Shown here: in pieces, positions 1,280 through 41,715 of the stretch
Layout: each line of letters begins with the position of its first letter
Position numbering within the stretch: position 1 is the stretch's first letter
Assembly (NCBI GenBank): GCA_905233465.1
Contig: CAJOEI010000018.1
Coordinates: forward strand, 1-51,439
Direction: 5' to 3'
Origin: an uncultured Bacteroidaceae bacterium
GTDB lineage: Bacteria; Bacteroidota; Bacteroidia; Bacteroidales; Bacteroidaceae
Length of the DNA stretch: 51,439 nucleotides
Translations under genes and position numbers: made by a program
Notes under the pieces: generated by a model
The model's input: the letters and a program-made list of their open reading frames with translations, nothing else
What the model was told of the DNA's origin: nothing
Databases searched by the model: none

Positions 1280-1396
1280 TTGGGTTAATGGGCTTAAAAC
1301 CTTAAACTTGGGTTAATGGGGTTAATGGGTATAATGGGCGATATGATTTTAATCTTTAAACTTTAAACCTTAAACTTTAAACTGCGGCGCAGCCGC
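1280..1396. repeat. TTAAAC/GGGTTAATGG low-complexity spacer
   Basis: The spacer between murB and the DUF4348 gene consists of short imperfect units (GGGTTAATGG three times, then TTTAAACCTTAAAC units) ending in a GC-rich palindrome (GCGGCGCAGCCGC). The same TTAAAC-type units recur at 13580-13600, 39790-39865 and 41640-41715, and a CTCTAAACT version lies inside gmd, so this is a dispersed repeat family rather than chance composition. Confidence 0.6.
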
Positions 1397-11102: not shown

Positions 11103-11105
11103 TTT

Positions 11106-11237
11106 CAATTCATAATTGACAATTCATAATTCACAATTATTCAGAACTTATTAGATAACACAATGAACAATGAACAATAAACATTTGGACATGCTATGCG
11201 CAGCCAATTATGAATTGTGAATTGTGCATTGTGAATT
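11106..11237. repeat. AATTCATAATTCACAATT spacer, copy 1
   Basis: The rnfC-rnfD gap consists of a left arm of AATTCATAATTC/CACAATT units and a right arm of the complementary AATTATGAATTGTG units, around a variable middle. The 34-nt right arm (11204-11237) is repeated without change at 12927-12960, between rnfG and rnfE. The arms can pair as a long AU-rich hairpin in the mRNA. Confidence 0.75.
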
Positions 11238-11246
11238 CAGAAGATT

Positions 11247-12227: not shown

Positions 12228-12841
12228 AAAAGTTACCATCCACACTTCCCAATATGCTCTGCGTGCTGACCCTCATCTCAGTCATCGCTGCAGGTGCATT
12301 GGCCTACGTGAACACAATCACGCAAGGCCCCATTGAAGAGAATAAAGCACGCACACTGACCGAAGGCATCAACACCGTGCTGGGCGTTTCCGACGCTCAG
12401 GTGCAGAACACCACCGAAGCAGAGGATGCCAACGGCAACCCTGTTATTCTCTATGCTACAGACAAGGGTGTCGCAGTGCAAGCCATTGACCCCAACGGTT
12501 TTGGAGGCAAGCTGAAGGTGCTAGTCGGCTTTGATGATGCAGGTGCCATCAAGGGTTACACGGTGCTCGAACATGCTGAGACACCTGGCCTTGGCGCAAA
12601 GGCAAACTTCTGGTTCCAGAAGGGCGAGAAAGGTGACATCATCGGCAAGAATCCCGGTGATGCCAAGTATGCCAACAGCGGCCTGACGGTGAGCAAAGAC
12701 GGTGGTGACGTGGACGCCATCACTGCTTCGACAATAACCAGCCGTGCCTTCCTGCGTGCCGTCAACGTGGCCTTCCATGCATACGCTGGAGCATCGGCAA
12801 CGGATGGCCAGACAGGGGCAAGTCCGCAAATTCACAATTGA
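12224..12841 (+). CDS. rnfG: Rnf complex FMN-binding subunit G
   Basis: RnfG is a membrane-anchored periplasmic flavoprotein of Rnf. The 205-residue protein has one N-terminal helix (about 10-30) and an FMN-binding domain with the covalent site DAITASTITS (about residues 166-175), whose final Thr carries FMN. The ...GYTVLEHAETPGLGAK motif is typical. Its last codons run into the repeat spacer, so the C-terminal QIHN is repeat-derived. Confidence 0.94.
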   Translation: MKKLPSTLPNMLCVLTLISVIAAGALAYVNTITQGPIEENKARTLTEGINTVLGVSDAQVQNTTEAEDANGNPVILYATDKGVAVQAIDPNGFGGKLKVLVGFDDAGAIKGYTVLEHAETPGLGAKANFWFQKGEKGDIIGKNPGDAKYANSGLTVSKDGGDVDAITASTITSRAFLRAVNVAFHAYAGASATDGQTGASPQIHN

Positions 12842-12960
12842 TAATTCATAATTCACAATTATTCACCTACTAAATGAAGCACAATGACAATAAGCTTTTC
12901 ACATCGCAGGTCTTGCTCCGCGCAGCCCAATTATGAATTGTGAATTGTGCATTGTGAATT
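12829..12960. repeat. AATTCATAATTCACAATT spacer, copy 2
   Basis: Same layout as the rnfC-rnfD spacer: a left arm of AATTCACAATT units beginning inside the rnfG 3' end, a variable middle, and the identical 34-nt right arm at 12927-12960. Two copies in one operon at equivalent positions, just before start codons, suggest either insertion of the same element twice or spread by gene conversion. Confidence 0.75.
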
Positions 12961-12970
12961 AAGAAGAAAT

Positions 12971-30850: not shown

Positions 30851-31957
30851 ATGAAGAAAGCATTGATAACCGGTATCACCGGACAGGACGGCTCTTTCCT
30901 GGCTGAGTTTCTGATTGAGAAAGGCTATGAAGTCCACGGCATTCTGCGCCGCAGCTCCAGCTTCAACACAGGCCGCATAGAGCATCTCTATCTCGACGAG
31001 TGGGTGCGCGACATGAAGAAGAAGCGCCTCGTGAACCTTCACTGGGGAGATATGACCGATAGCTCCAGCCTCATCCGAATCATCAGCGAGATACGTCCCG
31101 ACGAGATATACAATCTGGCAGCACAGAGCCATGTGAAGGTGAGCTTCGATGTGCCGGAGTTCACCGCCGACGCCGACGCGATGGGCGTGCTGCGACTCTT
31201 GGAGGCCGTGCGCATCGCTGGCATGGCTGACAAATGTCGCATCTACCAGGCTTCGACATCCGAACTCTTCGGACTGGTGCAGGAGGTGCCGCAGAAGGAG
31301 ACCACTCCGTTCTATCCCCGTTCGCCATATGGCGTTGCCAAGTTGTATGGCTACTGGATTATGAAGAACTACCGTGAGAGCTACGGCATGTACTGCTGCA
31401 ACGGCATCCTGTTTAACCATGAGAGCGAGCGCCGTGGCGAGACATTCGTCACACGAAAGATCACACTGGCCGCCGCACGCATAGCACAGGGCTTCCAGGA
31501 CAAACTCTATTTGGGTAATATGAATGCCCTGCGCGACTGGGGCTACGCCAAGGACTATGTGGAGTGCATGTGGCTCATCCTGCAGCAGCCTGAACCCGAT
31601 GACTTCGTGATAGCCACTGGACAGTACCACACCGTACGCGAGTTCTGCACCTTGGCCTTCAAGGAGGTCGGCATCGAGCTCCGTTGGGAAGGTGAAGGCG
31701 TGGACGAGAAAGGTATAGTCTCTAAACTCTCCGCTCTAAACTCTCAACTGAAAGTCGGAGACGTTATTGTAGAAGTGGATCCCAAGTACTTCCGTCCCGC
31801 CGAGGTCGAACAGCTCCTTGGTGACCCGTCGAAGGCCAAGAGCATCCTGGGCTGGAATCCCCAAAAGACCAGCTTCGAGGAACTGGTGAAGATCATGGTG
31901 CAGCACGACATGAAGAAGGTACGCAAGCTGTACATCCGCGAACACATGGACGAATAA
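30851..31957 (+). CDS. gmd: GDP-mannose 4,6-dehydratase
   Basis: Converts GDP-D-mannose to GDP-4-keto-6-deoxymannose, the first step to GDP-L-fucose. The 368 residues are an SDR enzyme: [14 protein letters not shown] (8-21), active-site [20 protein letters not shown] with the catalytic Tyr/Lys, and [17 protein letters not shown]. Near residue 295 the segment [13 protein letters not shown] is encoded by CTCTAAACTCTC-type repeat (31718-31753) and looks inserted into a surface loop just before [12 protein letters not shown]. The partner gene fcl follows only after a repeat-flanked GxxExxY gene. Confidence 0.95.
31718..31753 (+). repeat. CTCTAAACT repeat inside gmd
   Basis: CTCTAAACTCTCCGCTCTAA followed by ACTCTCAACT keeps the gmd frame and encodes [10 protein letters not shown]. 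The same wording fills the spacer at 39790-39865 (CTCTAAACTCTAAACC.., ACTCTCAACT), so a dispersed intergenic repeat appears within this coding region. Confidence 0.65.
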
Positions 31958-31979
31958 CATGAACATCTAAAAATTATTT

Positions 31980-32042
31980 GAACATCTAAAAACACGAAAT
32001 ATACGAAATGCATTTTTGTGTTTTTAGTGTTTTTCGATGTTA
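31980..32042 (+). repeat. AACATCTAAAAACACGAAA module, left of GxxExxY gene 1
   Basis: A palindromic module (AACATCTAAAAACACGAAA ... TTTTTGTGTTTTTAG ... CGATGTT) sits directly upstream of the GxxExxY gene. It recurs in the same orientation at 32459-32522 right after that gene. Each module can fold on itself. Confidence 0.8.
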
Positions 32043-32068
32043 TGTTATTAAATCATTTAGATGTTGAA

Positions 32069-32449
32069 ATGAAAATGTCGCTGTTATACCCTGAGGAGTC
32101 ATATAAGATTACTGGTGCCATTTACGAGGTTCATAAGGAACTAGGTCCTGGTCTCTTGGAAAAGGTTTACCAAGAAGCACTCGAAAAGGAACTAACACTT
32201 CAGGGTATTCCGTTTGAGCGTGAGAAAGCCTTCACTATAATGTACAAGGGTGAAGAGCTTGAACAGAAGTACATAGCTGACTTTATATGTTACAATAAGA
32301 TTGTTGTAGAACTAAAAGCAGTCGATGAGCTTCTTCCAGTTCACACAGCCCAAGTCATCAATTACCTTACTATCACAGGATATCAGCTTGGTCTGTTAGT
32401 GAACTTCAATGCTCACATGGTAAAACCAGAACGCATTGTAAGATATTAA
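32069..32449 (+). CDS. GxxExxY protein (PD-(D/E)XK nuclease fold), copy 1
   Basis: A 126-residue member of the GxxExxY family (PDDEXK_3 fold), biological role unknown. It shows the namesake GLLEKVY, then the nuclease-like core ADFICYNKIVVELKAV with the Asp and Glu-x-Lys positions in place. The start is the ATG at 32069; the frame runs further upstream only through the repeat module. It lies between gmd and fcl, genes usually adjacent, with a matching palindromic module on each side. AT-rich codon use differs from both neighbours. Confidence 0.88.
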   Translation: MKMSLLYPEESYKITGAIYEVHKELGPGLLEKVYQEALEKELTLQGIPFEREKAFTIMYKGEELEQKYIADFICYNKIVVELKAVDELLPVHTAQVINYLTITGYQLGLLVNFNAHMVKPERIVRY

Positions 32450-32458
32450 TTTGTTTAT

Positions 32459-32522
32459 GAACATCTAAAAGCACGAAATAAACGATTTTTCCTTTTAGCG
32501 TTTTTAGTGTATTTCGATGTTA
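32459..32522 (+). repeat. AACATCTAAAA-CACGAAA module, right of GxxExxY gene 1
   Basis: Direct repeat of the 31980-32042 module with a few changes (AACATCTAAAAGCACGAAAT ... TTTTAGTG ... CGATGTT), followed by partial CGATGTT units to 32554. The last unit runs into the fcl start region. Confidence 0.8.
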
Positions 32523-32556
32523 AAAATATCGATGTTTAAATTGTATTCCGATGTTA

Positions 32557-33498
32557 ATGAAGAAGAATTCAAAGATATACGTTGCCGGTCATCGCGGAAT
32601 GGTAGGAAGTGCCATCGTGCGTGAACTGCAACGGCAGGGTTACACCAATATTATTTCGCGCACGCATAAGGAGCTCGACCTCACGCGTCAGGCTGATGTG
32701 GAGGCGTTCTTCGCACAGGAGAAACCAGAATACGTGTTCCTCGCAGCTGCCAAGGTGGGTGGCATCGTGGCCAACCAGAGTGCGCTGGCCGACTTCATGT
32801 ACGACAACATGATTCTGGAGATGAATGTCATACATGCTGCATGGCAGAACGGCTGCAAGAAGCTGGAGTTCCTGGGCAGCAGCTGCATTTATCCTCGTAT
32901 GGCTCCACAGCCAATGCCGGAGAGCTGCCTGCTCACCGGTGCGCTGGAGAAGACCAACGAAGCATACGCACTGGCGAAGATCAGCGGACTGAAATACTGC
33001 GAGTTTCTCAACCGGCAGTATGGAACAGACTACATCAGCGTGATGCCCACCAACCTCTATGGCCCCAACGACAACTACCATCCCGAGCACAGCCATGTGC
33101 TGCCCGCCCTGATACGTCGCTTCCATGAGGCAAAGCTGGCGGGCGCAGAGAGCGTGACATGCTGGGGCGACGGCTCGCCGCTGCGTGAGTTCCTTTATGT
33201 GGATGATCTGGCCAACCTGTGCGTGTTCCTGATGAACAACTACAGCGGCAACGAGACAGTCAATGCAGGAACAGGCAAAGAGCTGACCATCAAGGCGCTG
33301 ACAGAACTGGTGGCAAAGGTTGTGGGTTATGAAGGCCGCATAGAATGGGACACCACACGACCCAATGGCACACCACGCAAGCTCCTGGATGTCAGCAAGG
33401 CTACAGCACTCGGATGGACATACAAGACTGAACTCGAGGACGGCATACGCCTCGCATACGATGACTTCCTGAACAACCCGATGAGGGCAGAGAGATAA
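32557..33498 (+). CDS. fcl: GDP-L-fucose synthase
   Basis: A bifunctional epimerase/NADPH-reductase that completes GDP-L-fucose from the Gmd product. The 313-residue SDR enzyme has GHRGMVGSAIVREL, LAAAKVGGI, FLGSSCIYPRMAPQPM with the active-site Ser/Cys, YALAKISGLKYCE with Tyr/Lys, and YGPNDNYHPEHSHVLPALI. The ATG at 32551 lies in the CGATGTTAA repeat unit, so the ATG at 32557 (MKKNSKIYVAG) is preferred. The 3' end leads into the capE cluster, 34 nt away. Confidence 0.94.
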   Translation: MKKNSKIYVAGHRGMVGSAIVRELQRQGYTNIISRTHKELDLTRQADVEAFFAQEKPEYVFLAAAKVGGIVANQSALADFMYDNMILEMNVIHAAWQNGCKKLEFLGSSCIYPRMAPQPMPESCLLTGALEKTNEAYALAKISGLKYCEFLNRQYGTDYISVMPTNLYGPNDNYHPEHSHVLPALIRRFHEAKLAGAESVTCWGDGSPLREFLYVDDLANLCVFLMNNYSGNETVNAGTGKELTIKALTELVAKVVGYEGRIEWDTTRPNGTPRKLLDVSKATALGWTYKTELEDGIRLAYDDFLNNPMRAER

Positions 33499-33532
33499 AA
33501 GAATCTAATAATCATTAAATAATACAACAGAA

Positions 33533-34630
33533 ATGTCAGTTTTTAAAGACAAGACGCTGCTCATCACGGGCGGCACAGGTAGTTTCGGAAACGCAGTGCT
33601 GAACCGCTTCCTGCGTACCGACATCGGTGAGATACGTATCTTCAGCCGCGACGAGAAGAAGCAGGACGACATGCGCCACGACTTCCAGGCACGCATGCCG
33701 GAGGTGGCAGGTAAGATTAAGTTTTACATCGGCGATGTGCGCAACCGTAGCACGCTGCACTATGCCATGCAGGGCGTGGACTACGTGTTCCATGCAGCAG
33801 CCCTCAAGCAGGTGCCCTCCTGCGAGTTCTTCCCGATGGAGGCCGTGAAGACCAATGTGATAGGTACAGATAACACGCTGGATGCAGCTATCGAGGCTGG
33901 CGTCAAATGTGTTATATGTCTCTCTACGGACAAAGCTGCCTATCCCATCAACGCAATGGGTATCACCAAGGCCATCGAGGAAAAGATAGCAGTCGCCAAG
34001 AGCCGCCTTTCCGGCAACACCAAGATCTGCTGCACCCGTTACGGCAATGTGATGTGCTCACGCGGCTCCGTCATTCCCCTTTGGATCGACCAGATTCGCA
34101 AGGGCAACCCCATCACCCTCACCGAGCCCAAGATGACCCGCTTCATCATGTCTCTCGAAGAGGCTGTGGACCTTGTCCTCTTCGCCTTCGAGAACGGTAA
34201 GAATGGCGACATCCTCGTACAGAAAGCTCCCGCCTGCACCATCCAGACCCAGGCCGAGGCTGTCTGTGAGCTATTCAAGCACCAGTATGGTAGCGCCTTG
34301 AACTCCTTGAACACCTCAAACCCCTTGAACTCTTCCGCACCCGAAATAAGGGTCATCGGTATCCGTCATGGTGAGAAGATGTACGAGACCCTCCTGACCA
34401 AGGAAGAGGCTGCCAAGGCCATCGACATGGGCAACTTCTATGCTGTTCCCGCAGACAACCGTGACCTGAACTACGACAAGTACTTCAAGGAAGGCGACGT
34501 CAAGCGCGCCACCATCGAGGAGTTCAACAGTGACAACACCTACCGCCTCAACCTCGAAGAGACCAAGGCAAAGATTGCCTCCCTTGAATACATCCAAAAC
34601 GAACTCAACGGCATCCCCAATCTGGTATAG
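33533..34630 (+). CDS. capE: UDP-GlcNAc 4,6-dehydratase/epimerase, CapE-like
   Basis: The first enzyme of UDP-N-acetyl-L-fucosamine synthesis; it acts on UDP-GlcNAc. The 365 residues include TGGTGSFGNAVLNRF, AAALKQVPSCEFFP, STDKAAYPINAMGITKAIEEK (Met in place of the usual Tyr, as in CapE/FlaA1 enzymes), and VIGIRHGEKMYETLL. Just before that last motif, residues about 255-270 (ALNSLNTSNPLNSSAPE) are encoded by CCTTGAACTCC-type repeat units and look like an in-frame loop insertion. The UDP-FucNAc partners capG and capF follow, each separated by a repeat-flanked small gene. Confidence 0.9.
   Translation: MSVFKDKTLLITGGTGSFGNAVLNRFLRTDIGEIRIFSRDEKKQDDMRHDFQARMPEVAGKIKFYIGDVRNRSTLHYAMQGVDYVFHAAALKQVPSCEFFPMEAVKTNVIGTDNTLDAAIEAGVKCVICLSTDKAAYPINAMGITKAIEEKIAVAKSRLSGNTKICCTRYGNVMCSRGSVIPLWIDQIRKGNPITLTEPKMTRFIMSLEEAVDLVLFAFENGKNGDILVQKAPACTIQTQAEAVCELFKHQYGSALNSLNTSNPLNSSAPEIRVIGIRHGEKMYETLLTKEEAAKAIDMGNFYAVPADNRDLNYDKYFKEGDVKRATIEEFNSDNTYRLNLEETKAKIASLEYIQNELNGIPNLV
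34296..34340 (+). repeat. CCTTGAAC repeat inside capE
   Basis: CCTTGAACTCCTTGAACACC, then TCAAACCCCTTGAACTC, keeps the capE frame. The same units (CCTTGAACATCTTGAACCC) fill the spacer at 35052-35132. Confidence 0.75.
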
Positions 34631-34664
34631 GGTTTAAGGGTTTAAGTTGTTTAAGAAGTTCAAG
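34630..34664 (+). repeat. GGGTTTAAG arm, left of the four-helix gene
   Basis: GGGTTTAAGGGTTTAAG followed by TTTAAGAAGTTCAAG. These are the complement of the CTTGAACCC units on the right side (35052-35132), so the small gene lies between inverted arms of one repeat family. Confidence 0.75.
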
Positions 34665-35057
34665 ATGAGCGCAGTTAAAGACTTTGAGGAACTAGCAATC
34701 TTCCAGAAAGCGCGTGAACTATCAAAGAAGATTTACTCTATTACTAAAAAGGAAAGGTTTAAGACTGATTATCGTTTTGTACAGCAGATAAGAGCTGCAG
34801 CAGGTTCCATTATGGATAATATTGCAGAAGGTTTTGAAAGAACTGGCAATAAGGAATTCTTGAACTTCTTATACATTGCTAAAGGTTCTTGTGGCGAAGT
34901 ACGCTCACAACTTATAAGAGCAAATGATGTTGGCTACTTGCCTATAGAAGAGTATGATGAGCTTTATACAGAATGTAGAAAGCTTTCAGCAGGAATAATG
35001 AACTTTATAAAAGAAATTAAATCAAGCGAGTTCGCGGGTGCAAAGTACAAGTTTTAA
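34665..35057 (+). CDS. Four-helix-bundle (IVS/S23-type) protein
   Basis: A 130-residue, almost entirely helical protein of the 23S-rRNA-intervening-sequence family: FEELAIFQKARELSKKIY, RAAAGSIMDNIAEGFER and FLNFLYIAKGSCGEVRSQL are typical. Family members are found inside intervening sequences of 23S rRNA genes and dispersed in chromosomes; their role is unknown. The start is the ATG at 34665; an earlier TTG lies in the repeat arm. It separates capE from capG. Lys/Glu-rich, AT-biased codons differ from the enzymes around it. Confidence 0.88.
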   Translation: MSAVKDFEELAIFQKARELSKKIYSITKKERFKTDYRFVQQIRAAAGSIMDNIAEGFERTGNKEFLNFLYIAKGSCGEVRSQLIRANDVGYLPIEEYDELYTECRKLSAGIMNFIKEIKSSEFAGAKYKF

Positions 35058-35132
35058 ACCCTTGAACATCTTGAACCCTTTGAACCCCTTGAACATCTTG
35101 AACCCTTTGAACCCTTTGAACCCCTTGAACAA
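35052..35132 (+). repeat. CTTGAACCC tandem arm, right of the four-helix gene
   Basis: About nine units of CTTGAAC(CCC/ATC/CCTT) in a row, starting at the stop codon of the four-helix gene and ending 14 nt before capG. Members of the same family appear inside capE, possibly inside capG (35719-35752), in the CapD-like gene (about 42626-42640) and at 43030-43070. Confidence 0.8.
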
Positions 35133-35146
35133 TTACAATTTATATC

Positions 35147-36307
35147 ATGGCTGAATTTAAGAATAACGGGAAGCTGAAGCTTCTCATCATTGTCGGCACT
35201 CGCCCCGAGATAATCCGTCTGGCTGCTGTCATCAATAAGTGCCGCCAGTATTTCGATTGCCTACTGGCTCACACCGGTCAGAACTACGACTACAACCTCA
35301 ATGGTGTCTTCTTCAAGGACCTCAAACTGGCTGACCCCGATGTGTACATGGAGGCTGTAGGAGCCGATCTCGGCGAAACCATGGGCAACATCATTGCCAA
35401 GAGCTACCAGCTGATGGTGGAAGTCCAGCCGGACGCTGTCCTTGTTTTGGGCGATACCAACAGCTGCCTCAGCGTCATCGGTGCTAAGCGCCTGCACATC
35501 CCCATCTTCCACATGGAAGCAGGCAACCGCTGCAAGGACGAGTGCCTGCCCGAAGAGACCAACCGCCGCATCGTGGACATTATCTCCGATGTGAACATGG
35601 CATATAGCGAGCATGCACGCCGCTATCTGGCTGATACGGGTCTGCCCAAGGAGCGCACCTACGTCACAGGCTCGCCCATGGCAGAAGTCCTGCACCAGAA
35701 CCTTGATGAAATCAAGGCCTCGAACATCTTGAACACCTTGAACCTTGAACCGAAGAAGTATATCCTTCTTTCCGCTCACCGCGAAGAGAATATCGATACC
35801 GAGAAGAACTTCCTGTCGCTCTTCAATGCCATCAACCAGATGGCAGAGAAGTACAACATGCCCATCCTCTACAGCTGCCACCCACGTTCACGCAAGCGCC
35901 TTGAGGCAACCGGCTTCCAATTGGATAAGCGTGTGATTCAGCATGAACCTCTCGGCTTCCACGACTACAACTGCCTCCAGATGAACGCTTTCTGTGTGGT
36001 TAGTGATAGTGGTACTTTACCGGAGGAGAGCTCCTTCTTCACCTCCGTAGGCCATCCCTTCCCAGCCGTCTGCATCCGCACTTCTACCGAGCGCCCTGAG
36101 GCTCTCGATAAAGGCTGCTTCGTGCTCAGCGGTATCGATACCGTAGGTTTGCTCCAAAGCGTCGATGTGGCTGTAAGCCTTATCAAGGACGGCAACCACG
36201 GCATCCCTGTGCCCGACTATGTAGATGAGAATGTCTCCACCAAGGTCGTCCGCATCATCCAGAGTTACGTGGGAGTTGTCAATAAAATGGTTTGGAGGAA
36301 GTTCTAA
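35147..36307 (+). CDS. capG: UDP-N-acetylhexosamine 2-epimerase, CapG-like
   Basis: A non-hydrolysing 2-epimerase that yields UDP-L-FucNAc at the end of the CapE/CapF/CapG route. The 386-residue two-domain enzyme has IVGTRPEIIRLAAVI, HTGQNYDYNLNG, LGDTNSCLS, HMEAGNRCKDECLPEETNRR, SAHREENI and SDSGTLPEESSFF. HTGQNYD rather than the WecB-style TGQH separates this branch from the wecB gene at 48568. Residues about 192-201 (NILNTLNLEP) are coded by CTTGAACACC-like repeat wording, but related enzymes have a similar-length helix there, so insertion is doubtful. Confidence 0.88.
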   Translation: MAEFKNNGKLKLLIIVGTRPEIIRLAAVINKCRQYFDCLLAHTGQNYDYNLNGVFFKDLKLADPDVYMEAVGADLGETMGNIIAKSYQLMVEVQPDAVLVLGDTNSCLSVIGAKRLHIPIFHMEAGNRCKDECLPEETNRRIVDIISDVNMAYSEHARRYLADTGLPKERTYVTGSPMAEVLHQNLDEIKASNILNTLNLEPKKYILLSAHREENIDTEKNFLSLFNAINQMAEKYNMPILYSCHPRSRKRLEATGFQLDKRVIQHEPLGFHDYNCLQMNAFCVVSDSGTLPEESSFFTSVGHPFPAVCIRTSTERPEALDKGCFVLSGIDTVGLLQSVDVAVSLIKDGNHGIPVPDYVDENVSTKVVRIIQSYVGVVNKMVWRKF

Positions 36308-36339
36308 TGAACTTCTCGCAGATCTTTTAGTTATCAATT

Positions 36340-36382
36340 GTATCCGCGAAATCAATATCAATCAGCGCAATCTGCGTGATTG
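36340..36382 (+). repeat. ATCAGCGAAATC-family arm, left of GxxExxY gene 2
   Basis: Units such as TCCGCGAAATCAATATC, ATCAGCGCAATCTGCG. The family continues on the far side of the small gene (36772-36828) and occurs twice inside capF. Confidence 0.7.
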
Positions 36383-36389
36383 AAATGAA

Positions 36390-36772
36390 ATGGAAATAAG
36401 AGAGAACGAGATATCTTATAAGAACGAGGCGCAATATTCAATGTGTACAACAACCTTGGGCCTGGACTTCTGGAAAGTGCTTATGAAACAGCACTGATTA
36501 TAGAGTTAGAAAATGCAGGCCTATCGGTTGAAAAACAAGTTTATCTGCCTATTGTCTATGGAGGTGTCACGATTCCGAAAGCTTATCGTATAGATATTTT
36601 AGTTGAAAAGAAAGTAATAATAGAGCTGAAAGCAGTACTACATGTAAGCGATGTATGCTATAAGCAACTTCTGACCTATCTGAAAATGACTGGTTTGAAG
36701 CTTGGTATCTTGGTGAACTTTGATACCACTGATATAGCATCATCAATTCAACGTTGTGTAAATGGGTTGTAA
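36390..36772 (+). pseudogene. GxxExxY protein, copy 2, frameshifted
   Basis: A second GxxExxY (PDDEXK_3) gene. The ATG at 36390 encodes MEIRENEISYK, then the frame is lost near 36425. One missing base shifts it into GAIFNVYNNLGPGLLESAYE..., which continues to the stop at 36770-36772. The nuclease core YRIDILVEKKVIIELKAV is intact. Without the shift the protein would be about 127 residues. It could still be made from the internal GTG at 36443, lacking the first ~18 residues. The stop codon is part of the right-hand repeat arm. The shift may be genuine or a sequencing error. Confidence 0.8.
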
Positions 36773-36828
36773 TCAGCGAAATCTGTTACATCAGCGAAAT
36801 CAGCTACATCTGCGAGATCAGCGAAATT
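36772..36828 (+). repeat. ATCAGCGAAATC-family arm, right of GxxExxY gene 2
   Basis: Four to five units: ATCAGCGAAATCTGTTAC, ATCAGCGAAATCAGCTAC, ATCTGCGAGATCAGCGAAAT. Read in frame it would prepend ISEICYISEISYICEISEI to capF, which explains the long open frame upstream of that gene. Confidence 0.8.
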
Positions 36829-36837
36829 CAAAGAATT

Positions 36838-38202
36838 ATGAATATTTTAGTGACTGGTGCCAAGGGGTTTGTAGGCAAGAACCTCTGTTGGGCGCTGAAG
36901 AACATACAGGCTGGTAAGGACAGGACCCATCCGGGCCTCACCATTGATGCGGTTTATGAATACGATCTGGATTCGACTCCCGAAGAATTGGACGCTTGGT
37001 GCCGCGATTGTGACTTTGTGTTCAACCTTGCCGGCGTCAACCGTCCTCAGAACCAGGAAGAGTTCATGCAAGGCAACTTCGGCTTTGCCTCGACCCTGCT
37101 CGACACATTAAAGAAATATAACAATCGCTGCCCCGTAATGCTCTCTTCCAGCCAACAAGCTTCCTTGACCGGCCGCTTCGGCAACAGCGAGTACGGCCGC
37201 AGCAAGAAAGCAGGTGAGGACCTCTTCTTGAAATTCGAGGACGAGTTTCTGCGAAGCGCAGATAACGCTGATTGGGCAGATAACGCAGATCTGCGAAATC
37301 AAAACATATCAGCGAAATCTGCGGGATTAAGACCTCGCGTCTTAATCTACCGTTTCCCGAACCTCTTCGGCAAGTGGTGCCGCCCCAACTACAATAGCGC
37401 CGTAGCCACCTTCTGCAATGCCTTTGCCAACGACCTGCCATATACGGTCAATGACCCCAGCGTGGAGCTGGAACTCCTCTACATCGACGATCTCGTCGAT
37501 GAGATGCTCTCCGCCCTCGAGGGCCAGGAACACCGCTGTGAATTCAATGGCTTAGAGGTGCTTCCAGCACCCGCAGATAACGCAGATCTGGCAGATAGCG
37601 CAGATAATCAGCGAAATCAAAAATTATCAGCGAAATCAGCGTGTACGGAGTACAGGTATTGCTATTGCCCCATCACACATCATGTCACTCTTGGTGAGAT
37701 AGTAGAACTTCTGAAGTCCTTCGCCGAGCAGCCGCAGACCTTGATGATTCCTGAGATACCATCTGGTTCGTTCGCCAAGAAACTGTACTCCACCTATCTC
37801 TCGTATCTCCCTTACGAGAAGACCGCCTTCCCTTTGAAGATGAACGTTGACGACCGCGGCAGCTTCACCGAGCTGGTGCATACCCACAGTGCTGGTCAGG
37901 TTAGCATCAACATTTCCAAGCCCGGCATCACCAAGGGTCAGCACTGGCACAACACCAAGTTCGAGCAGTTCATCGTGGTCAAAGGCCACGGCATCATCCA
38001 GCAGCGCAACCTCAATGACCCAGATGGTCGCGTGCTTGAGTGGGAGGTCGACGGCGACCATATCCAGGCCGTCCATATGCTTCCTGGCTACACGCACAAT
38101 ATCATCAACCTCAGTGACACCGAAGACCTCGTCACGGTGATGTACTGCAATGAGATCTTCAACCCCAACAAGCCGGACACTTTCTTCGACCCCGTAAAAT
38201 AG
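36838..38202 (+). CDS. capF: CapF-like bifunctional SDR-cupin enzyme with two repeat-coded insertions
   Basis: CapF/FnlB/WbjC acts between CapE and CapG in UDP-L-FucNAc synthesis. From the ATG at 36838 it has 454 residues: an SDR domain (VTGAKGFVGKNLCWAL, FNLAGVNRP, SSSQQASLTGRFGNSEYGRSK read as two motifs) and a C-terminal cupin (VDDRGSFTELVHT, GQHWHNTKFEQFIVVKGHG). Two stretches absent from the usual protein, about residues 138-165 and 245-271, are coded by the ATCAGCGAAATC/GCAGATAACGC repeat family and read ADNADWADNADL and ADNADLADSADN with NISAKSAG-type ends. Both keep the frame. The family is normally about 370 residues. Confidence 0.9.
   Translation: MNILVTGAKGFVGKNLCWALKNIQAGKDRTHPGLTIDAVYEYDLDSTPEELDAWCRDCDFVFNLAGVNRPQNQEEFMQGNFGFASTLLDTLKKYNNRCPVMLSSSQQASLTGRFGNSEYGRSKKAGEDLFLKFEDEFLRSADNADWADNADLRNQNISAKSAGLRPRVLIYRFPNLFGKWCRPNYNSAVATFCNAFANDLPYTVNDPSVELELLYIDDLVDEMLSALEGQEHRCEFNGLEVLPAPADNADLADSADNQRNQKLSAKSACTEYRYCYCPITHHVTLGEIVELLKSFAEQPQTLMIPEIPSGSFAKKLYSTYLSYLPYEKTAFPLKMNVDDRGSFTELVHTHSAGQVSINISKPGITKGQHWHNTKFEQFIVVKGHGIIQQRNLNDPDGRVLEWEVDGDHIQAVHMLPGYTHNIINLSDTEDLVTVMYCNEIFNPNKPDTFFDPVK
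37249..37332 (+). repeat. In-frame repeat insertion 1 in capF
   Basis: Units GCGCAGATAACGCTGATTGG, GCAGATAACGCAGATCTGCG, AAATCAAAACATATCAGCGA, AATCTGCGGG. About 84 nt (28 codons) between AGEDLFLKFEDEF and RVLIYRFPNLFGK, adjacent in related proteins. Same family as the arms flanking GxxExxY gene 2. Confidence 0.8.
37570..37650 (+). repeat. In-frame repeat insertion 2 in capF
   Basis: Units CCGCAGATAACGCAGATCTG, GCAGATAGCGCAGATAATCA, GCGAAATCAAAAATTATCAG, CGAAATCAGCG. About 81 nt between FNGLEVLP and YCYCPITHHVTLGEIV, in frame. Confidence 0.8.
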
Positions 38203-38209
38203 TATAGTA

Positions 38210-39007
38210 ATGAAGACAATCCTCGTCACAGGCTCAGCCGGTTTCATCGGTGCCAACCTCGTCAAGCGCCTCTTACATGAGTTGCGTGGAGCCACCATAG
38301 TCGGCATCGACAATATGAATGCCTACTATGATGTGTCTCTTAAAGAATACCGTCTTCAAGAAATCGAGCAACTGGCAGTGTGCCCGACGGTTTTGCCGTC
38401 GGGAAACAAGTGGACCTTCGTCCGCGGCTCCATCGCCGATCGTGACCTCATCAACCGCCTCTTCGAGGAATACCATTTCGACATCGTTGTCAACCTTGCA
38501 GCCCAAGCTGGCGTCCGCTATAGCATCGAGAACCCAGATGTCTATATCGAGAGCAACATCATCGGCTTCTATAATATCCTTGAAGCCTGTCGCCATAGCC
38601 TCACCCCCGACCCCTCCCCTGAAGGGAAGGGGAGTAAGTCCGTCCCTTTAGGGAAGGATTTAGGAAAGGCTGGGAGCTATAACGGTGTACAACACCTTGT
38701 GTATGCCAGCAGCTCCAGCGTCTATGGCGGCAACAAGAAGGTGCCGTTTTCGACAGACGACCGTGTGGACAATCCCGTTTCGCTCTATGCCGCCACTAAG
38801 AAGAGCAACGAGCTGATGGCGCACTGCTATAGCAAGCTCTATAACATCCCTTCCACCGGTCTCCGCTTCTTCACCGTCTATGGGCCTGCCGGCCGTCCCG
38901 ATATGGCTTACTTCGGCTTCACAAACAAGCTCCTCAAAGGCGAGACCATCCAAATCTACAACTACGGCAACTGCCGTCGCGACTTCACCTACATTGATGA
39001 CATGTAA
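38210..39007 (+). pseudogene. UDP-glucuronate 4-epimerase-like gene, N-terminal part
   Basis: The N-terminal 265 residues of an NAD-dependent nucleotide-sugar epimerase: VTGSAGFIGANLVKRL, NLAAQAGVRYSIENPD, YASSSSVYGGNKKVPF, YAATKKSNELMAHCY, FFTVYGPAGRPDMA, RDFTYIDDM. It then meets a stop at 39005-39007. In intact relatives the motif continues VEG.VRVMQ. Here the next bases read (G)TA ATG CAA, i.e. V-M-Q in the +1-shifted frame, so about 19 nt seem to be missing. Residues about 131-156 (LTPDPSPEGKGSKSVPLGK...) are a repeat-coded insertion. The rest of the enzyme is in the following ORF, beyond a DUF559 cassette. Confidence 0.8.
38599..38676 (+). repeat. CCCTCCCCTGAAGGGAAGGGG repeat inside the epimerase gene
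   Basis: A G/C-rich palindromic unit (CCCCTCCCCTGAAGGGAAGG and flanks) plus a CCCTTTAGGG part, in frame between NILEACRHS and GVQHLVYASSSS, which related enzymes join with a short loop. It is the same family as the inverted repeats around the DUF559 cassette at 39022-39509. Confidence 0.8.
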
Positions 39008-39786
39008 TGCAAAGACCTCCAGCCTCTCCCCAGCCCTCCCCTGAAGGGAAGGGAGCAGCTCCCCTCCTTCAGGAGGGGGCGGGAGAGGCCAGAAAGGCTA
39101 TGAAAGACTTAGGGATACATACAGCAGATCCTACGATGTATGGCCTTTTGAAAGATCATGCAGAGGAAATGCGTAAGAACCCAACAGAGGCTGAAAGCGT
39201 TCTCTGGAATGCACTCAGGGCTAAAGGTATTGGAATAAAGTTTCGTCAACAACACATTATAGAGGACTATATTGTGGATTTCTACTGCAATGAGTATAAA
39301 TTGATTGTAGAAGTTGATGGGGGTAATCATAATTCACAGGAGCAATCAGCTTATGACGCAGAGCGAACATCACGTCTGAACGAGTTGGGTTATACCGAAC
39401 TGCGTTTCACTAATGAAGAAATCCTCCATGATTTAGACAATGTCCTCAAAAAGATAAAAACATTCAGCAACAATACTCCCTTCCCTTCAGGGGAGGGTCG
39501 GGGAGAGGCTCCATATGCAATATATAACATCGGTGGTGGCCAGCCGGAGAACCTCCTCGACTTCGTCAATATCCTGCAAGAGGAACTTGTAAGAGCCGGC
39601 GTTCTGCCAAAGGACTTCAATTTCGACGCCCACAAGCAATTGGTTGCAATGCAACCTGGTGACGTTCCAGTCACTTACGCAGATAGTACTGCTCTGGAAA
39701 GAGATTTTGGCTTTACGCCAAGAATCACTTTACGCGAAGGTCTACGCCACTTCGCTGAATGGTATGCGTCGTATTATGCATCCTGA
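39007..39786 (+). CDS. DUF559 endonuclease domain fused in frame to the epimerase C-terminus
   Basis: A 259-residue frame of three parts. Residues 1-30 (MQRPPASPQPSPEGKG...) are epimerase MQR plus repeat. Residues about 31-155 are a complete DUF559 (Vsr-like PD-(D/E)XK) protein: MRKNPTEAESVLWNALRAK, KFRQQHIIEDYIVDFYC, LIVEVDGGNHNSQEQSAYD, RLNELGYTELRFTNEEIL. Residues about 168-259 are the missing epimerase C-terminus (YAIYNIGGGQPENLLDF, MQPGDVPVTYADS, DFGFTPRITLREGLRHF). The DUF559 part may start on its own at the ATG at 39100 (MKDLGIHT). DUF559 proteins are single-strand-repair-like nucleases of unknown role. The reading frame is open across cassette and host C-terminus. Confidence 0.85.
   Translation: MQRPPASPQPSPEGKGAAPLLQEGAGEARKAMKDLGIHTADPTMYGLLKDHAEEMRKNPTEAESVLWNALRAKGIGIKFRQQHIIEDYIVDFYCNEYKLIVEVDGGNHNSQEQSAYDAERTSRLNELGYTELRFTNEEILHDLDNVLKKIKTFSNNTPFPSGEGRGEAPYAIYNIGGGQPENLLDFVNILQEELVRAGVLPKDFNFDAHKQLVAMQPGDVPVTYADSTALERDFGFTPRITLREGLRHFAEWYASYYAS
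39022..39509 (+). mobile_element. DUF559 cassette bounded by 34-nt inverted repeats
   Basis: The 34-nt sequence at 39022-39055 (starting GCCTCTCCCC, containing CCCTCCCCTGAAGGGAAGGG) recurs inverted at 39476-39509 with only two differences. The left end has a second half-palindrome to 39089 that closes with GGGAGAGGC. The cassette encodes only the DUF559 protein. It lies in the variable loop of the epimerase between the VMQR and YNIGG motifs. No target-site duplication could be assigned with confidence. Confidence 0.75.
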
Positions 39787-39789
39787 GCC

Positions 39790-39865
39790 AGTCTAAGGAC
39801 ACTATCAACCCTAAACTATCAACTGACTCTAAACTCTAAACCTTAAACTCTCAACTAAAATTATT
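39790..39865 (+). repeat. CTCTAAACT/CCTTAAAC spacer
   Basis: Spacer of CCCTAAACTATCAACTGACT, CTCTAAACTCTAAACCTTAA, ACTCTCAACT units between the epimerase remnant and the ATPase gene. Related to the spacer at 41640-41715 and to the gmd insertion. Confidence 0.65.
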
Positions 39866-39880
39866 GTGGTATAAACATAT

Positions 39881-41041
39881 ATGAGGAGAATAATAATACG
39901 TGATTTTGGTCCAATAAAGGAAGCTGATATTTTACTTCAAGATGTAAATGTCATTATTGGTGAGCAAAGCATAGGCAAAAGTTGTGTTTTGAAGGTATCT
40001 TGTTTCTGCACTTGGGTGGAAAAACGCATAGCCATAGAACAGAACGCGAAGCGCTTTGAGAAGAATGGCGTGTTTATTGAAGAACTGGTTAACTTCCACC
40101 GCTTGAATGGGTATGTGCATGATAATACATATATTGGGTATGAGTCGAATTTTATAAAATTCTCTTATGACAGCGAAAAAGGCTTTTCCTATGAGTGGAA
40201 AGAGAAGAGATGGGATTATAAGCGCCCTAAGGTAAGTTATGTGCCTGCTGAAAGAAATTTGGTGGCCGTCATCCCAAATTGGTTCGAGGTAAAGTCGGTT
40301 GCTGAGAATATTCAAGACTTTATGGCAGACTGGTCGGATGCCAGAAAATCTATTGAAAATGATAAAGATATCCTTAATCTTGACGTGGCATACCATTATG
40401 ACGAAGGTAGTGATATGGACTATGTAAAGATGAAGGATGGGCGTATTCTTCCATTTACGAATGTATCAAGTGGTCTTCAATCATTGATACCTCTATATGT
40501 ACATTTAGTTAATATTACCAGCAAAAAATATCGGGAGCGGGAAGACAACTCGGTGAAGCATAAGTCGGAAATAGATAATTTGGTAGACTTACTGGTAGAT
40601 TTTTATGCTAAGAACTTAGGTGAGGCTTTAATTAAAAATCCAAATCAAGAAACCGGTCTGGAAAAGGAATACATTCCCAATCCAGAAATGAAAAACTGGT
40701 TAATTGAAAAGCTCCTTAATATATCAAGAATCCATCATTGTGAAGTGTTCCTAGAAGAACCGGAATTGAATCTTTTCCCTCCAACGCAACAAATTCTGAT
40801 GAAGTCGCTTCTAAGATTTGTCAATATGGAAAAAGGTAATACACTCTTTATATCAACCCACAGTCCATATATTCTAGACATCCTGTTAGAAAGGGAAACC
40901 TACGATTTCGGATTGTTCTATATCCATTCTGCAGAGAATGGCTCTGTGGTCAAAACCGCAACAGAGGCTGATGTTCAAGATATGTTTGAAAGTGGAGTAG
41001 ACGCATTCTTTAATATAGAAAGGCTTGGTGATGAAGTATAA
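39881..41041 (+). CDS. OLD/RecF-like AAA ATPase (candidate defence gene)
   Basis: A 386-residue ABC-type ATPase of the AAA15/AAA21 class: Walker A GEQSIGKSC (27-35), a long helical insertion, an SSGLQSLIP signature-like loop (196-204), Walker B EVFLEEPELNLFP (288-300) and THSPYIL with the switch His327. It lacks the C-terminal Toprim nuclease of full OLD proteins, and the next gene, overlapping by 11 nt, could supply that activity. Two-gene ATPase/Toprim pairs such as PARIS act against phage, so a defence role is plausible but inferred. Strongly AT-rich compared with the sugar genes, suggesting acquisition by transfer. Confidence 0.75.
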   Translation: MRRIIIRDFGPIKEADILLQDVNVIIGEQSIGKSCVLKVSCFCTWVEKRIAIEQNAKRFEKNGVFIEELVNFHRLNGYVHDNTYIGYESNFIKFSYDSEKGFSYEWKEKRWDYKRPKVSYVPAERNLVAVIPNWFEVKSVAENIQDFMADWSDARKSIENDKDILNLDVAYHYDEGSDMDYVKMKDGRILPFTNVSSGLQSLIPLYVHLVNITSKKYREREDNSVKHKSEIDNLVDLLVDFYAKNLGEALIKNPNQETGLEKEYIPNPEMKNWLIEKLLNISRIHHCEVFLEEPELNLFPPTQQILMKSLLRFVNMEKGNTLFISTHSPYILDILLERETYDFGLFYIHSAENGSVVKTATEADVQDMFESGVDAFFNIERLGDEV

Positions 41042-41582
41042 TGAGATTATGCCGGAGTGTTTTATCGACACGACGCTTGTTGCTTCATTGTTGGATGCTA
41101 AGGTAAGTCATAAACATAGCTGCAATGAGGTAGCAAGGGAGATGGAGAAAGGGAAATATAAGGATTCATTTGCTGTTGGCATTATAGACAATGATAAAAG
41201 GAAGATATCTTATATAGAGAGCTTTGATGAGATTGGGAGAACGGACAACCTTACATTTTTAAAGCATAGTGATAAGCCCCAGTATGTTATAAAAGTTGGG
41301 AAAGAACACAAAGCGATGGAGACTTTCATCAAAGCAAATATAGATGCTATAGGAATGAAGATGGAGGATTTTGATTTGCCTTCAGACCTTGCCAAACTGA
41401 TTGGGCTAACAAAAGATAGTGTATCAACTCAAAAGGACCCAAGAATTCTGAATTTATGCAAGATGATGCGCCTGTCACCGGAAGTGGCAAAACTTCAAGA
41501 TGTACTTGCTTATCTTGCTGCGAATAAGTACAATGTTGATATAGACGAATTAAAGGAAAAGATAGAGGGAATTAAGAAGTAG
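41031..41582 (+). CDS. Toprim-like partner of the ATPase
   Basis: A 183-residue protein starting at the ATG inside the end of the ATPase gene. TTG and GTG codons just upstream are alternatives. The N-terminal part looks like a small Toprim fold: an acidic Glu9 (MPECFIDTTLV), a helix, then a strand ending FAVGIIDNDK with Asp53 and Asp55 in DxD spacing. The C-terminal half is helical. I do not recognise a named family. The 11-nt overlap implies coupled translation and a joint complex with the ATPase. Confidence 0.6.
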   Translation: MKYNEIMPECFIDTTLVASLLDAKVSHKHSCNEVAREMEKGKYKDSFAVGIIDNDKRKISYIESFDEIGRTDNLTFLKHSDKPQYVIKVGKEHKAMETFIKANIDAIGMKMEDFDLPSDLAKLIGLTKDSVSTQKDPRILNLCKMMRLSPEVAKLQDVLAYLAANKYNVDIDELKEKIEGIKK

Positions 41583-41639: not shown

Positions 41640-41715
41640 AAAGCATCTGTAAACCTTAAACGGTAAACAGTAAACTATAAACCTTAAACTTTAACCGTTA
41701 AACTTTAACCATTAC
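41640..41715 (+). repeat. TAAACCTTAAAC spacer
   Basis: GTAAACCTTAAACGGTAAAC, AGTAAACTATAAACCTTAAA, CTTTAACCGTTAAACTTTAA units between the Toprim-like gene and the CapD-like gene. Confidence 0.65.

What the first reader, a model, noticed from the sequence alone, without database searches (positions are those of the whole stretch)
31958..39786. Four cargo genes, each inside its own short-repeat family: a candidate class of loop-invading elements
Seen: GxxExxY gene 1 sits between AACATCTAAAA modules, the four-helix gene between GGGTTTAAG/CTTGAACCC arms, GxxExxY gene 2 between ATCAGCGAAATC arms, and DUF559 between CCCTCCCCTGAAGGG inverted repeats. All lie within 8 kb, wedged between genes of otherwise contiguous pathways (gmd|fcl, capE|capG, capG|capF, and inside an epimerase). 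Known: GxxExxY and DUF559 have PD-(D/E)XK nuclease folds, and IVS four-helix proteins occur in intervening sequences of 23S rRNA. Inference: repeat plus cognate protein form elements that insert into tolerated sites, with the nuclease or helical protein aiding spread or maintenance.
Basis: partly seen in the sequence, partly recalled or inferred. Interest (0 to 1): 0.93.

Follow-up and report, generated by a model that had tools for sequence, protein, structure and literature searches.

The report
Operon-riding selfish genes with private arms
Three unrelated kinds of small gene sit, in this and many other bacterial genomes, between short mirror-image repeats that differ at most sites yet are typical of the gene they enclose; the whole package is present or absent at the same gene junctions and even lies inside enzymes such as leucyl-tRNA synthetase, so it is likely a new class of selfish genetic element that would spread by copying itself into tolerated sites.

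Summary
In same-genus genomes, GxxExxY, four-helix (23S_rRNA_IVP) and DUF559 genes lie between inverted short-repeat arms in 27/30, 27/29 and 26/30 loci, against 0/30 for ParE genes and 0/357 shuffles. Arms are private (left and right share a 10-mer in 119/163 loci; different same-cargo loci in 437/4361 pairs) but follow a family grammar that predicts the cargo: 43/52 correct in other genera, permuted mean 33%. GxxExxY arms recur across phyla (56/78).

The same operon junctions are empty, or hold any of three cargoes, or only arms. Cargo mostly reads with its neighbours. DUF559 also sits in frame inside LeuS, MetH, RecG, HsdR and a WbcJ-type enzyme. One DUF559 element is 99% identical in two genomes whose flanks average 85%; another junction shows element replacement. 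No clear target-site duplication, no general Y1 transposase.

Best reading: minimal, operon-riding selfish elements, spreading rarely by homing-like conversion. That cargo drives spread is inferred.

The parts
31961..32041 (+). left arm of element 1 (AACATCTAAAA/ACACGAAA units, itself an inverted pair)
32042..32449 (+). GxxExxY gene 1 (PD-(D/E)XK type), between gmd and fcl; the reading frame is open from 32018
32457..32555 (+). right arm of element 1
34629..34664 (+). left arm of element 2 (GGGTTTAAGGGTTTAAG.. units)
34665..35057 (+). four-helix 23S_rRNA_IVP gene between capE and capG
35054..35131 (-). right arm of element 2 (CCCTTGAAC 9-mers, inverted to the left arm)
34296..34332 (.). arm of element-2 type inside the open frame of capE
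35718..35751 (.). arm of element-2 type inside the open frame of capG
36342..36385 (.). left repeat of element 3 (ATCCGCGAAATC..ATCAGCGCAATCTGCG)
   Evidence: direct match significant, inverted not
36428..36772 (+). GxxExxY gene 2 between capG and the WbcJ-type gene; its N-terminus lies in another frame
36771..36832 (.). right repeat of element 3 (ATCAGCGAAATC units)
37257..37328 (.). geneless left+right arm pair of element-3 type, in frame inside the WbcJ-type gene (aa about 139-162)
   Evidence: absent from or replaced in the shorter homologs aligned
37572..37646 (.). second geneless arm pair of element-3 type, in frame (aa about 243-272)
38606..38670 (.). geneless DUF559-type hairpin arms inside the open frame of the epimerase
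39021..39090 (+). left arm(s) of element 4 (CCAGCCCTCCCCTGAAGGGAAGGG..)
39007..39786 (+). ORF carrying DUF559 (aa 49-152) fused to the C-terminal part of the split epimerase
39476..39510 (-). right arm of element 4, 94% complementary to 39021-39055
   Evidence: I1
11104..11240 (.). geneless inverted arm pair of four-helix type (ACAATTCATAATTCACAATT / AATTATGAATTGTG)
12828..12970 (.). second copy of that geneless pair; arms nearly the same, middle different

Best explanation
Each of these cargo genes is the core of a minimal element bounded by a pair of short-repeat arms, usually inverted and mostly private to its locus, and it likely behaves as a promoterless selfish gene that rides the transcript of a host operon and spreads rarely by homing-like conversion of empty sites. 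Shown: the arm-gene-arm architecture, its family-specific grammar, the bias to sense orientation, occupancy polymorphism at fixed junctions, in-frame insertion in host proteins, arms-only copies, one same-site pair whose near-identity ends within 40 bp of the arms, and one element replacement. Inferred: that expression comes from read-through; that the nuclease types (GxxExxY, PD-(D/E)XK; DUF559, EDxHD/Vsr-like) cut DNA at or near the target or the folded arms and so drive conversion; that the four-helix protein binds the arms or recruits a host nuclease for the same end; that matched arms are kept by pairing (cruciform or hairpin) or by arm-to-arm conversion.
For: Arms: 27/30, 27/29, 26/30 vs 0/30 ParE, 0/357 shuffles; further loci from genus genomes 13/13 four-helix, 13/13 DUF559, 4/8 GxxExxY; phylum-wide 19/29, 16/30, 17/26; across phyla 56/78 for GxxExxY. 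Cargo specificity: left-one-out 152/163; genus-trained, other genera tested 43/52; permuted mean 33%, max 62%; 52/56 cross-phylum GxxExxY arms assigned to GxxExxY. Private arms; DUF559 hairpin loops identical left/right in 21/53 loci vs 56/2756 between loci. Sites: etfA|acd, 30 loci = 17 empty, 7 four-helix, 1 DUF559, 4 arms-only, 1 other; korA|korB, 30 loci = 17 empty, 5 GxxExxY, 1 four-helix, 1 DUF559, 4 arms-only, 1 partial, 1 unresolved (classes read by eye). Orientation, 212 loci: both neighbours same strand 103, both opposite 6, mixed 21, rest unresolved; ParE, 30 loci: 5, 4, 5, rest unresolved. In-frame: 9 of 120 listed WbcJ-type homologs carry DUF559; LeuS, MetH, RecG, HsdR. Mobility: L085/L219, 630 bp with 4 mismatches, flanks 85% on average; L039/L054, flanks 93% on average, element windows 46-83%. 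Nuclease kin: DUF559 profile hits 3r3p 'mobile intron protein' 4.6e-7; likely catalytic residues invariant in the aligned sets.
Against: No near-identical cargo at two different sites: the best pair without matching flanks that I could judge is L012/L014 at 76% (L059/L063 at 81% could not be judged, L059 ends at the contig edge). At one junction, cargo of one family needs 1-3 changes on quick trees, so most copies are inherited or re-copied in place. In 63 syntenic pairs cargo is on average less conserved than the host flanks, exceeding them in 14, as for vertical descent. 33 of 85 phylum-wide loci, 22/78 cross-phylum GxxExxY loci and 43/75 viral-contig DUF559 loci lack detectable inverted arms. 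Arms are not always private: the window has two copies of one geneless pair. No cutting was tested; the four-helix protein has no known nuclease fold. Only one recent transfer was seen.
Confidence: 0.55

Rival explanations
1. The elements act at the RNA level, as messenger counterparts of 23S rRNA intervening sequences: the arms pair in the operon transcript, the cargo gene is looped out and cut away by RNase III, and this is what makes the insertion tolerable.
For: PF05635 is named for 23S intervening sequences; IVS ends are complementary and form a stem cut by RNase III (PMC4990558, passages); cargo lies mostly in sense.
Against: If sense RNA pairing were selected, G-U-compatible mismatches between arms should exceed their mirror type; they do not: GxxExxY 58 vs 59, four-helix 44 vs 77, DUF559 36 vs 57. 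In-frame elements inside LeuS or MetH would be destroyed by RNA cutting, since IVS fragments leave a fragmented rRNA (PMC4990558, passages) and are not rejoined.
Confidence: 0.2
2. The arms are REP/MITE-like repeats moved in trans by a host transposase, as in RAYT-REP systems, and the cargo is carried along.
For: Inverted palindromic arms around one gene and arms-only copies look like RAYT units and REPINs (PMC2817692, passages). Short direct repeats of 4 bp or more next to the arms are somewhat more frequent than in shuffled pairs (13.1% vs 8.5% of 160).
Against: Y1 transposase (PF01797) is found in 22/61 genomes (17 over the cut-off) and not in the window's genome; direct repeats of 5 bp or more are not clearly in excess, 7/160 vs 2.7%; arms are mostly locus-private, not a shared repeat family.
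Confidence: 0.1
3. Ordinary accessory genes: the arms are slippage-grown terminators or spacers and nothing moves.
For: Mostly vertical inheritance at a junction; tandem short units are prone to slippage (general knowledge).
Against: Cargo-specific arms across genera, none around ParE, three unrelated cargoes at the same junctions, a 99% identical element in diverged flanks, and in-frame full elements in some orthologs only.
Confidence: 0.07
4. The cargo genes are defence or maintenance genes that use permissive operon junctions, with arms as recognition or self-protection sites.
For: Nuclease folds; DUF559 shows weak PADLOC kinship to a homing endonuclease and to restriction models.
Against: No PADLOC hit for the GxxExxY and four-helix proteins; does not explain arms-only copies or in-frame insertion.
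Confidence: 0.08

Closest known systems
23S rRNA intervening sequence (IVS) with S23p/IVP ORF
   Same: S23p-type ORF between complementary ends (428 nt in Coxiella, PMC4990558, passages), in sense to the host transcript
   Different: here in protein operons and not in rRNA; arms are tandem 7-9-mers mostly private to each locus; two nuclease families share the plan; RNase III excision untested
RAYT units / REPINs
   Same: one gene flanked by inverted palindromic repeats; gene-less doublets elsewhere
   Different: no Y1 transposase; arms not shown to be multi-copy across the genome; three unrelated cargo families
Free-standing homing endonuclease genes, EDxHD family (I-Bth0305I) and PD-(D/E)XK family
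   Same: small nuclease gene in tolerated sites, same-site spread with a short flanking tract (one case); DUF559 related by profile to PDB 3r3p
   Different: inverted repeat arms; in-frame insertion without intron or intein; no cleavage shown
Rickettsia palindromic elements (in-frame palindromic inserts; nature recalled, term present in the MITE review PMC10969869, search listing only)
   Same: arms-only copies lie in frame in protein loops
   Different: here arms of the same types also enclose genes of three kinds
Inteins
   Same: in-frame insertion of a nuclease domain in essential enzymes
   Different: no splicing domain among the Pfam hits; the insert stays in the protein (predicted)

Membership tests
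23S rRNA IVS | located in 23S rRNA helices | tested here: not met
   the elements examined lie at gmd|fcl, capE|capG, etfA|acd, korA|korB and inside protein genes; rRNA itself was not searched
23S rRNA IVS | complementary ends around the ORF | tested here: met
23S rRNA IVS | excised by RNase III | not testable with these tools
   no RNA data; mismatch asymmetry gives no support
RAYT/REP unit | encodes a Y1 (HuH) transposase | tested here: not met
   cargo families are PF13366, PF05635, PF04480; PF01797 not found in the window's genome
RAYT/REP unit | gene flanked by inverted palindromic repeats | tested here: met
RAYT/REP unit | repeats abundant in the genome | tested here: inconclusive
   one repeat counted in the own genome: 6 copies of AACATCTAAAA; arms of other loci rarely shared
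EDxHD homing endonuclease gene | catalytic domain of the I-Bth0305I type | tested here: met
   profile hit to 3r3p, E 4.6e-7 (that 3r3p is I-Bth0305I is recalled); E15, D43, E54, D56, H60 invariant in 12 aligned sequences
EDxHD homing endonuclease gene | spreads into the same site with co-conversion of flanks | tested here: inconclusive
   one pair, L085/L219: identity runs 36 bp and 18 bp past the arms
EDxHD homing endonuclease gene | cuts the element-free site | not testable with these tools
   biochemistry needed
DDE transposon | target-site duplication | tested here: inconclusive
   5 bp or more 7/160 vs 2.7% in shuffled pairs; 4 bp or more 13.1% vs 8.5%; no consistent length
Intein | Hint splicing domain | tested here: not met
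   Pfam scan of LeuS, MetH, RecG, HsdR and WbcJ-type hosts (7 proteins) shows DUF559 and host domains, no splicing domain

The most novel reading that the evidence does not exclude
A class of selfish genetic element not described in the papers searched, spread over many bacterial phyla: one small gene (PD-(D/E)XK GxxExxY, EDxHD-type DUF559, or a four-helix protein) between two arms whose sequence is rewritten in concert at each locus, so that element ends are defined by matching each other and a family grammar and not by a fixed sequence; it travels in operons and inside the reading frames of essential enzymes, leaving arms-only scars that become new protein loops.
Probability: 0.6. Interest if true: 0.95.

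Novelty: categorically new. Interest (0 to 1): 0.92.

Why it matters
It would explain three widespread gene families of Bacteroidota (GxxExxY in 50, four-helix in 75 and DUF559 in 53 of 99 phylum-wide genomes), and many short repeats between operon genes, as one kind of parasite. It would add element ends that are not a fixed sequence, which repeat and transposon finders built on shared sequence would miss, and a source of in-frame insertions in conserved enzymes. It would also make the 23S rRNA intervening sequences, with their unexplained ORF, the rRNA branch of a wider class, and it gives natural filled and empty sites on which to test the protein's role.

Tried and rejected
Rejected: 'cargo inserts in both orientations', an early reading (still in note 3); loci of minus-strand matches are not turned, and after orientation the 15 cargo genes at the two junctions read in sense (by eye), with the general bias. 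Not supported: sense-RNA pairing from wobble asymmetry; clear target-site duplications; a general Y1 transposase; phage as main vehicle for GxxExxY (2 relatives in the viral collection, at least 574 in the genome contigs; the two scans did not use the same patterns). The cross-locus control was replaced, because orthologous loci inflate it. Quick trees are FastTree only. Papers: ten searches showed no description of these elements; searches matched thousands of papers, of which I saw only the 15, 15 and 6 listed; the two papers that hold 'GxxExxY' were seen as listings only; most subscription journals are not held. Passages were read in PMC4990558, PMC2817692 and PMC3943268 only.

Dropped rows: L059; one four-helix and three DUF559 loci; L380 and L441; 5 of 80 viral DUF559 loci; duplicates L187, L193, L201, L211, and L226 (= L068), which was still; one search repeats those counts without it and changes them little (153/164, 120/164, 451/4418, permuted mean 32%, max 60%). 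Viral loci include near-identical contigs (such as L465/L485 and L515/L516), so 32/75 is not a count of independent cases. The four-helix line was cut from the output; one search gives 16/30, shuffled 0/90, displaced 2/60. Loci of family searches are the best-scoring hits, mostly one per genome, capped at 30, not a random sample; the cross-phylum and DUF559 viral sets are the 80 best.
Full report
What was checked. Against 200 dinucleotide shuffles the arms of three of the four are beyond chance in inverted orientation; for GxxExxY-2 only the direct match is. The window also holds arms without a gene inside the open frames of capE, capG, the WbcJ-type gene and the epimerase, and two copies of a geneless arm pair at 11104-11240 and 12828-12970.

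Are arms tied to cargo? I took the best cargo matches in 61 genomes of the genus and scored the left flank against the reverse complement of the right flank. With 250-base flanks a score of 14 or more was reached by 27/30 GxxExxY, 27/29 four-helix and 26/30 DUF559 loci, by 0/30 loci of a control family (ParE), by 0/357 shuffled pairs, by 1/160 displaced positions in the cargo loci and 2/52 in the ParE loci; direct matches reached it in 8/30, 5/29, 7/30 and 0/30. With 300-base flanks, further loci of genus genomes gave 13/13 four-helix, 13/13 DUF559 and 4/8 GxxExxY; loci drawn over the phylum gave 19/29, 16/30 and 17/26. In one scan of genome contigs the 80 best GxxExxY loci gave 56/78, in Bacteroidota, Chloroflexota, Verrucomicrobiota, Planctomycetota, Acidobacteriota, several proteobacterial classes and more, with 0/78 shuffled and 2/136 displaced; phyla were assigned by me from record titles, and the single loci from Elusimicrobiota, Cyanobacteria and Archaea had none. 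In viral contigs 32/75 DUF559, 9/14 four-helix and 2/2 GxxExxY loci have arms, so bare DUF559 genes are common there.

What are the arms? Each family has a grammar: GxxExxY about ACCACRGAG-nn-CACRGAG-nn-CACRGAG or ACGGATT/ACAGATT variants; four-helix tandem 7-9-mers such as GTTAAG, GATTAGG or GGTTAGC units; DUF559 a C-rich tail plus a hairpin, CCCCTCTCC-loop-GGAGAGGGG (read by eye). A 4-mer classifier on arms alone names the cargo in 152/163 cases left out one by one, and in 43/52 when trained on the genus and tested on other genera; permuted labels give 33% on average, 62% at most. Within a family the sequence is mostly private: the two arms of one locus share a 10-mer in 119/163 loci, arms of different loci in 437/4361 pairs; DUF559 hairpin loops agree left-right in 21/53 loci but between loci in 56/2756 comparisons. 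Among five DUF559 elements at etfA|acd, which need a single change on the quick tree, there are four loop types, and the loops match within the locus exactly in L073, L087 and L222 and nearly in L068 and L079: the two arms seem to change in concert.

Where do they sit? At etfA|acd, 30 loci read as 17 empty (at most 48 bp), 7 with a four-helix element, 1 with DUF559, 4 with arms only and 1 with another small ORF; at korA|korB, 30 loci read as 17 empty, 5 GxxExxY, 1 four-helix, 1 DUF559, 4 arms only, 1 partial and 1 unresolved (gene names recalled). At apgM|thrC the window's own genome is empty, three of the 30 loci carry DUF559 and several carry arms only. Cargo mostly reads with its neighbours: of 212 loci, both neighbours lie on its strand in 103, both opposite in 6, mixed in 21, the rest unresolved by this open-frame test; ParE, 30 loci, gives 5, 4 and 5. 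In the genus search 16 of the 73 DUF559 matches with E below 1e-22 lie in open frames of 300 aa or more, one of them with an inner stop; not all were checked for their host. Pfam confirms hosts for six fetched loci: LeuS (two different places, L314 and L332), MetH (L324, L329), RecG (L338) and HsdR (L316), and for one WbcJ-type homolog (P0021). Of the 120 listed homologs of the window's WbcJ-type protein, 9 carry DUF559; in the six of them that I aligned it lies after the QQRN-type loop. Aligning 15 chosen proteins, the window's two in-frame arm inserts are missing or replaced by other sequence in the shorter ones.

Does it move? Of the pairs compared, L085 and L219 stand out: 630 bp with 4 mismatches, running 36 bp past the left and 18 bp past the right arm, while the flanks average 85% and range from 73 to 96% in 60-base windows. 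L039 and L054 show the reverse: flanks 93% on average, element windows 46-83% with other arms. Otherwise cargo is on average less conserved than the host flanks (30, 17 and 16 syntenic pairs: 75.9 vs 82.1, 76.5 vs 82.0, 74.4 vs 77.1; cargo higher in 14 of 63), one junction's cargo of one family needs 1-3 changes on quick trees, and no near-identical copies were found at different sites. Movement is thus rare, and site-bound where seen.

How it may work. Target-site duplications are not clear (5 bp or more 7/160 vs 2.7% shuffled; 4 bp or more 13.1% vs 8.5%), Y1 transposase is found in 22/61 genomes only, no splicing domain is seen. GxxExxY keeps an invariant D...E-x-K set (11 sequences) and DUF559 E, D, E, D, H (12 sequences); the DUF559 profile finds PDB 3hrl and 3r3p, 'mobile intron protein', recalled as I-Bth0305I, the exemplar of the EDxHD homing family (PMC3943268, passages). 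The GxxExxY profile finds no PDB entry. Homing-like conversion fits the near-identical tract that runs past the arms and the replacement. Sense orientation is most simply explained by dependence on host transcription (inferred). The RNA-level rival, modelled on 23S rRNA IVS (PMC4990558, passages), predicts an excess of sense G-U-compatible mismatches; none is seen and two families lean the other way.

Place among known things. The plan resembles RAYT units, described as always flanked by two inverted REPs (PMC2817692, abstract and passages), but the gene is no transposase and the arms are mostly private. It resembles IVS for one cargo family, homing endonuclease genes for another, and palindromic in-frame inserts for the arms-only copies. 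No listed paper joins these (ten searches, see Tried and rejected).

Noticed in passing
window 11104-11240 and 12828-12970: Two copies of a geneless element with nearly the same inverted arms (ACAATTCATAATTCACAATT...AATTATGAATTGTG) but different middles: arms shared between two loci of one genome, against the usual privacy.
   Followed up: partly
window 36390-36480: The N-terminal residues of GxxExxY-2 are in another frame than the rest of the gene; decay, a shorter start or a sequence error.
   Followed up: no
window 39881-41582: AAA_15/AAA_21 ATPase gene followed by an overlapping 185-aa ORF without Pfam hit; looks like a two-gene defence-type module just downstream of the split epimerase.
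   Followed up: no
L147 (etfA|acd junction): A short ORF without evident arms sits at the same hotspot junction, so the junction also tolerates other inserts.
   Followed up: no
window 1310-1383, 2395-2432, 31720-31749, 39826-39856, 41650-41708: Further tandem 7-9-mers of four-helix arm type (such as TAAACTT/CTCTAAA units) without a cargo gene; 31720-31749 lies inside the open frame of gmd.
   Followed up: partly
G086, G098, G114: GxxExxY inside an 883-aa open frame in three genomes of one genus: a possible in-frame case for this cargo too.
   Followed up: no
L139: Nested arms at etfA|acd: an ACGGATT-type pair enclosing a CACGAATT-type pair, as if one element had entered another.
   Followed up: no
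mismatch counts: Left/right arm mismatches are skewed towards the antisense-wobble type in four-helix (77 vs 44) and DUF559 (57 vs 36) elements; unexplained.
   Followed up: no
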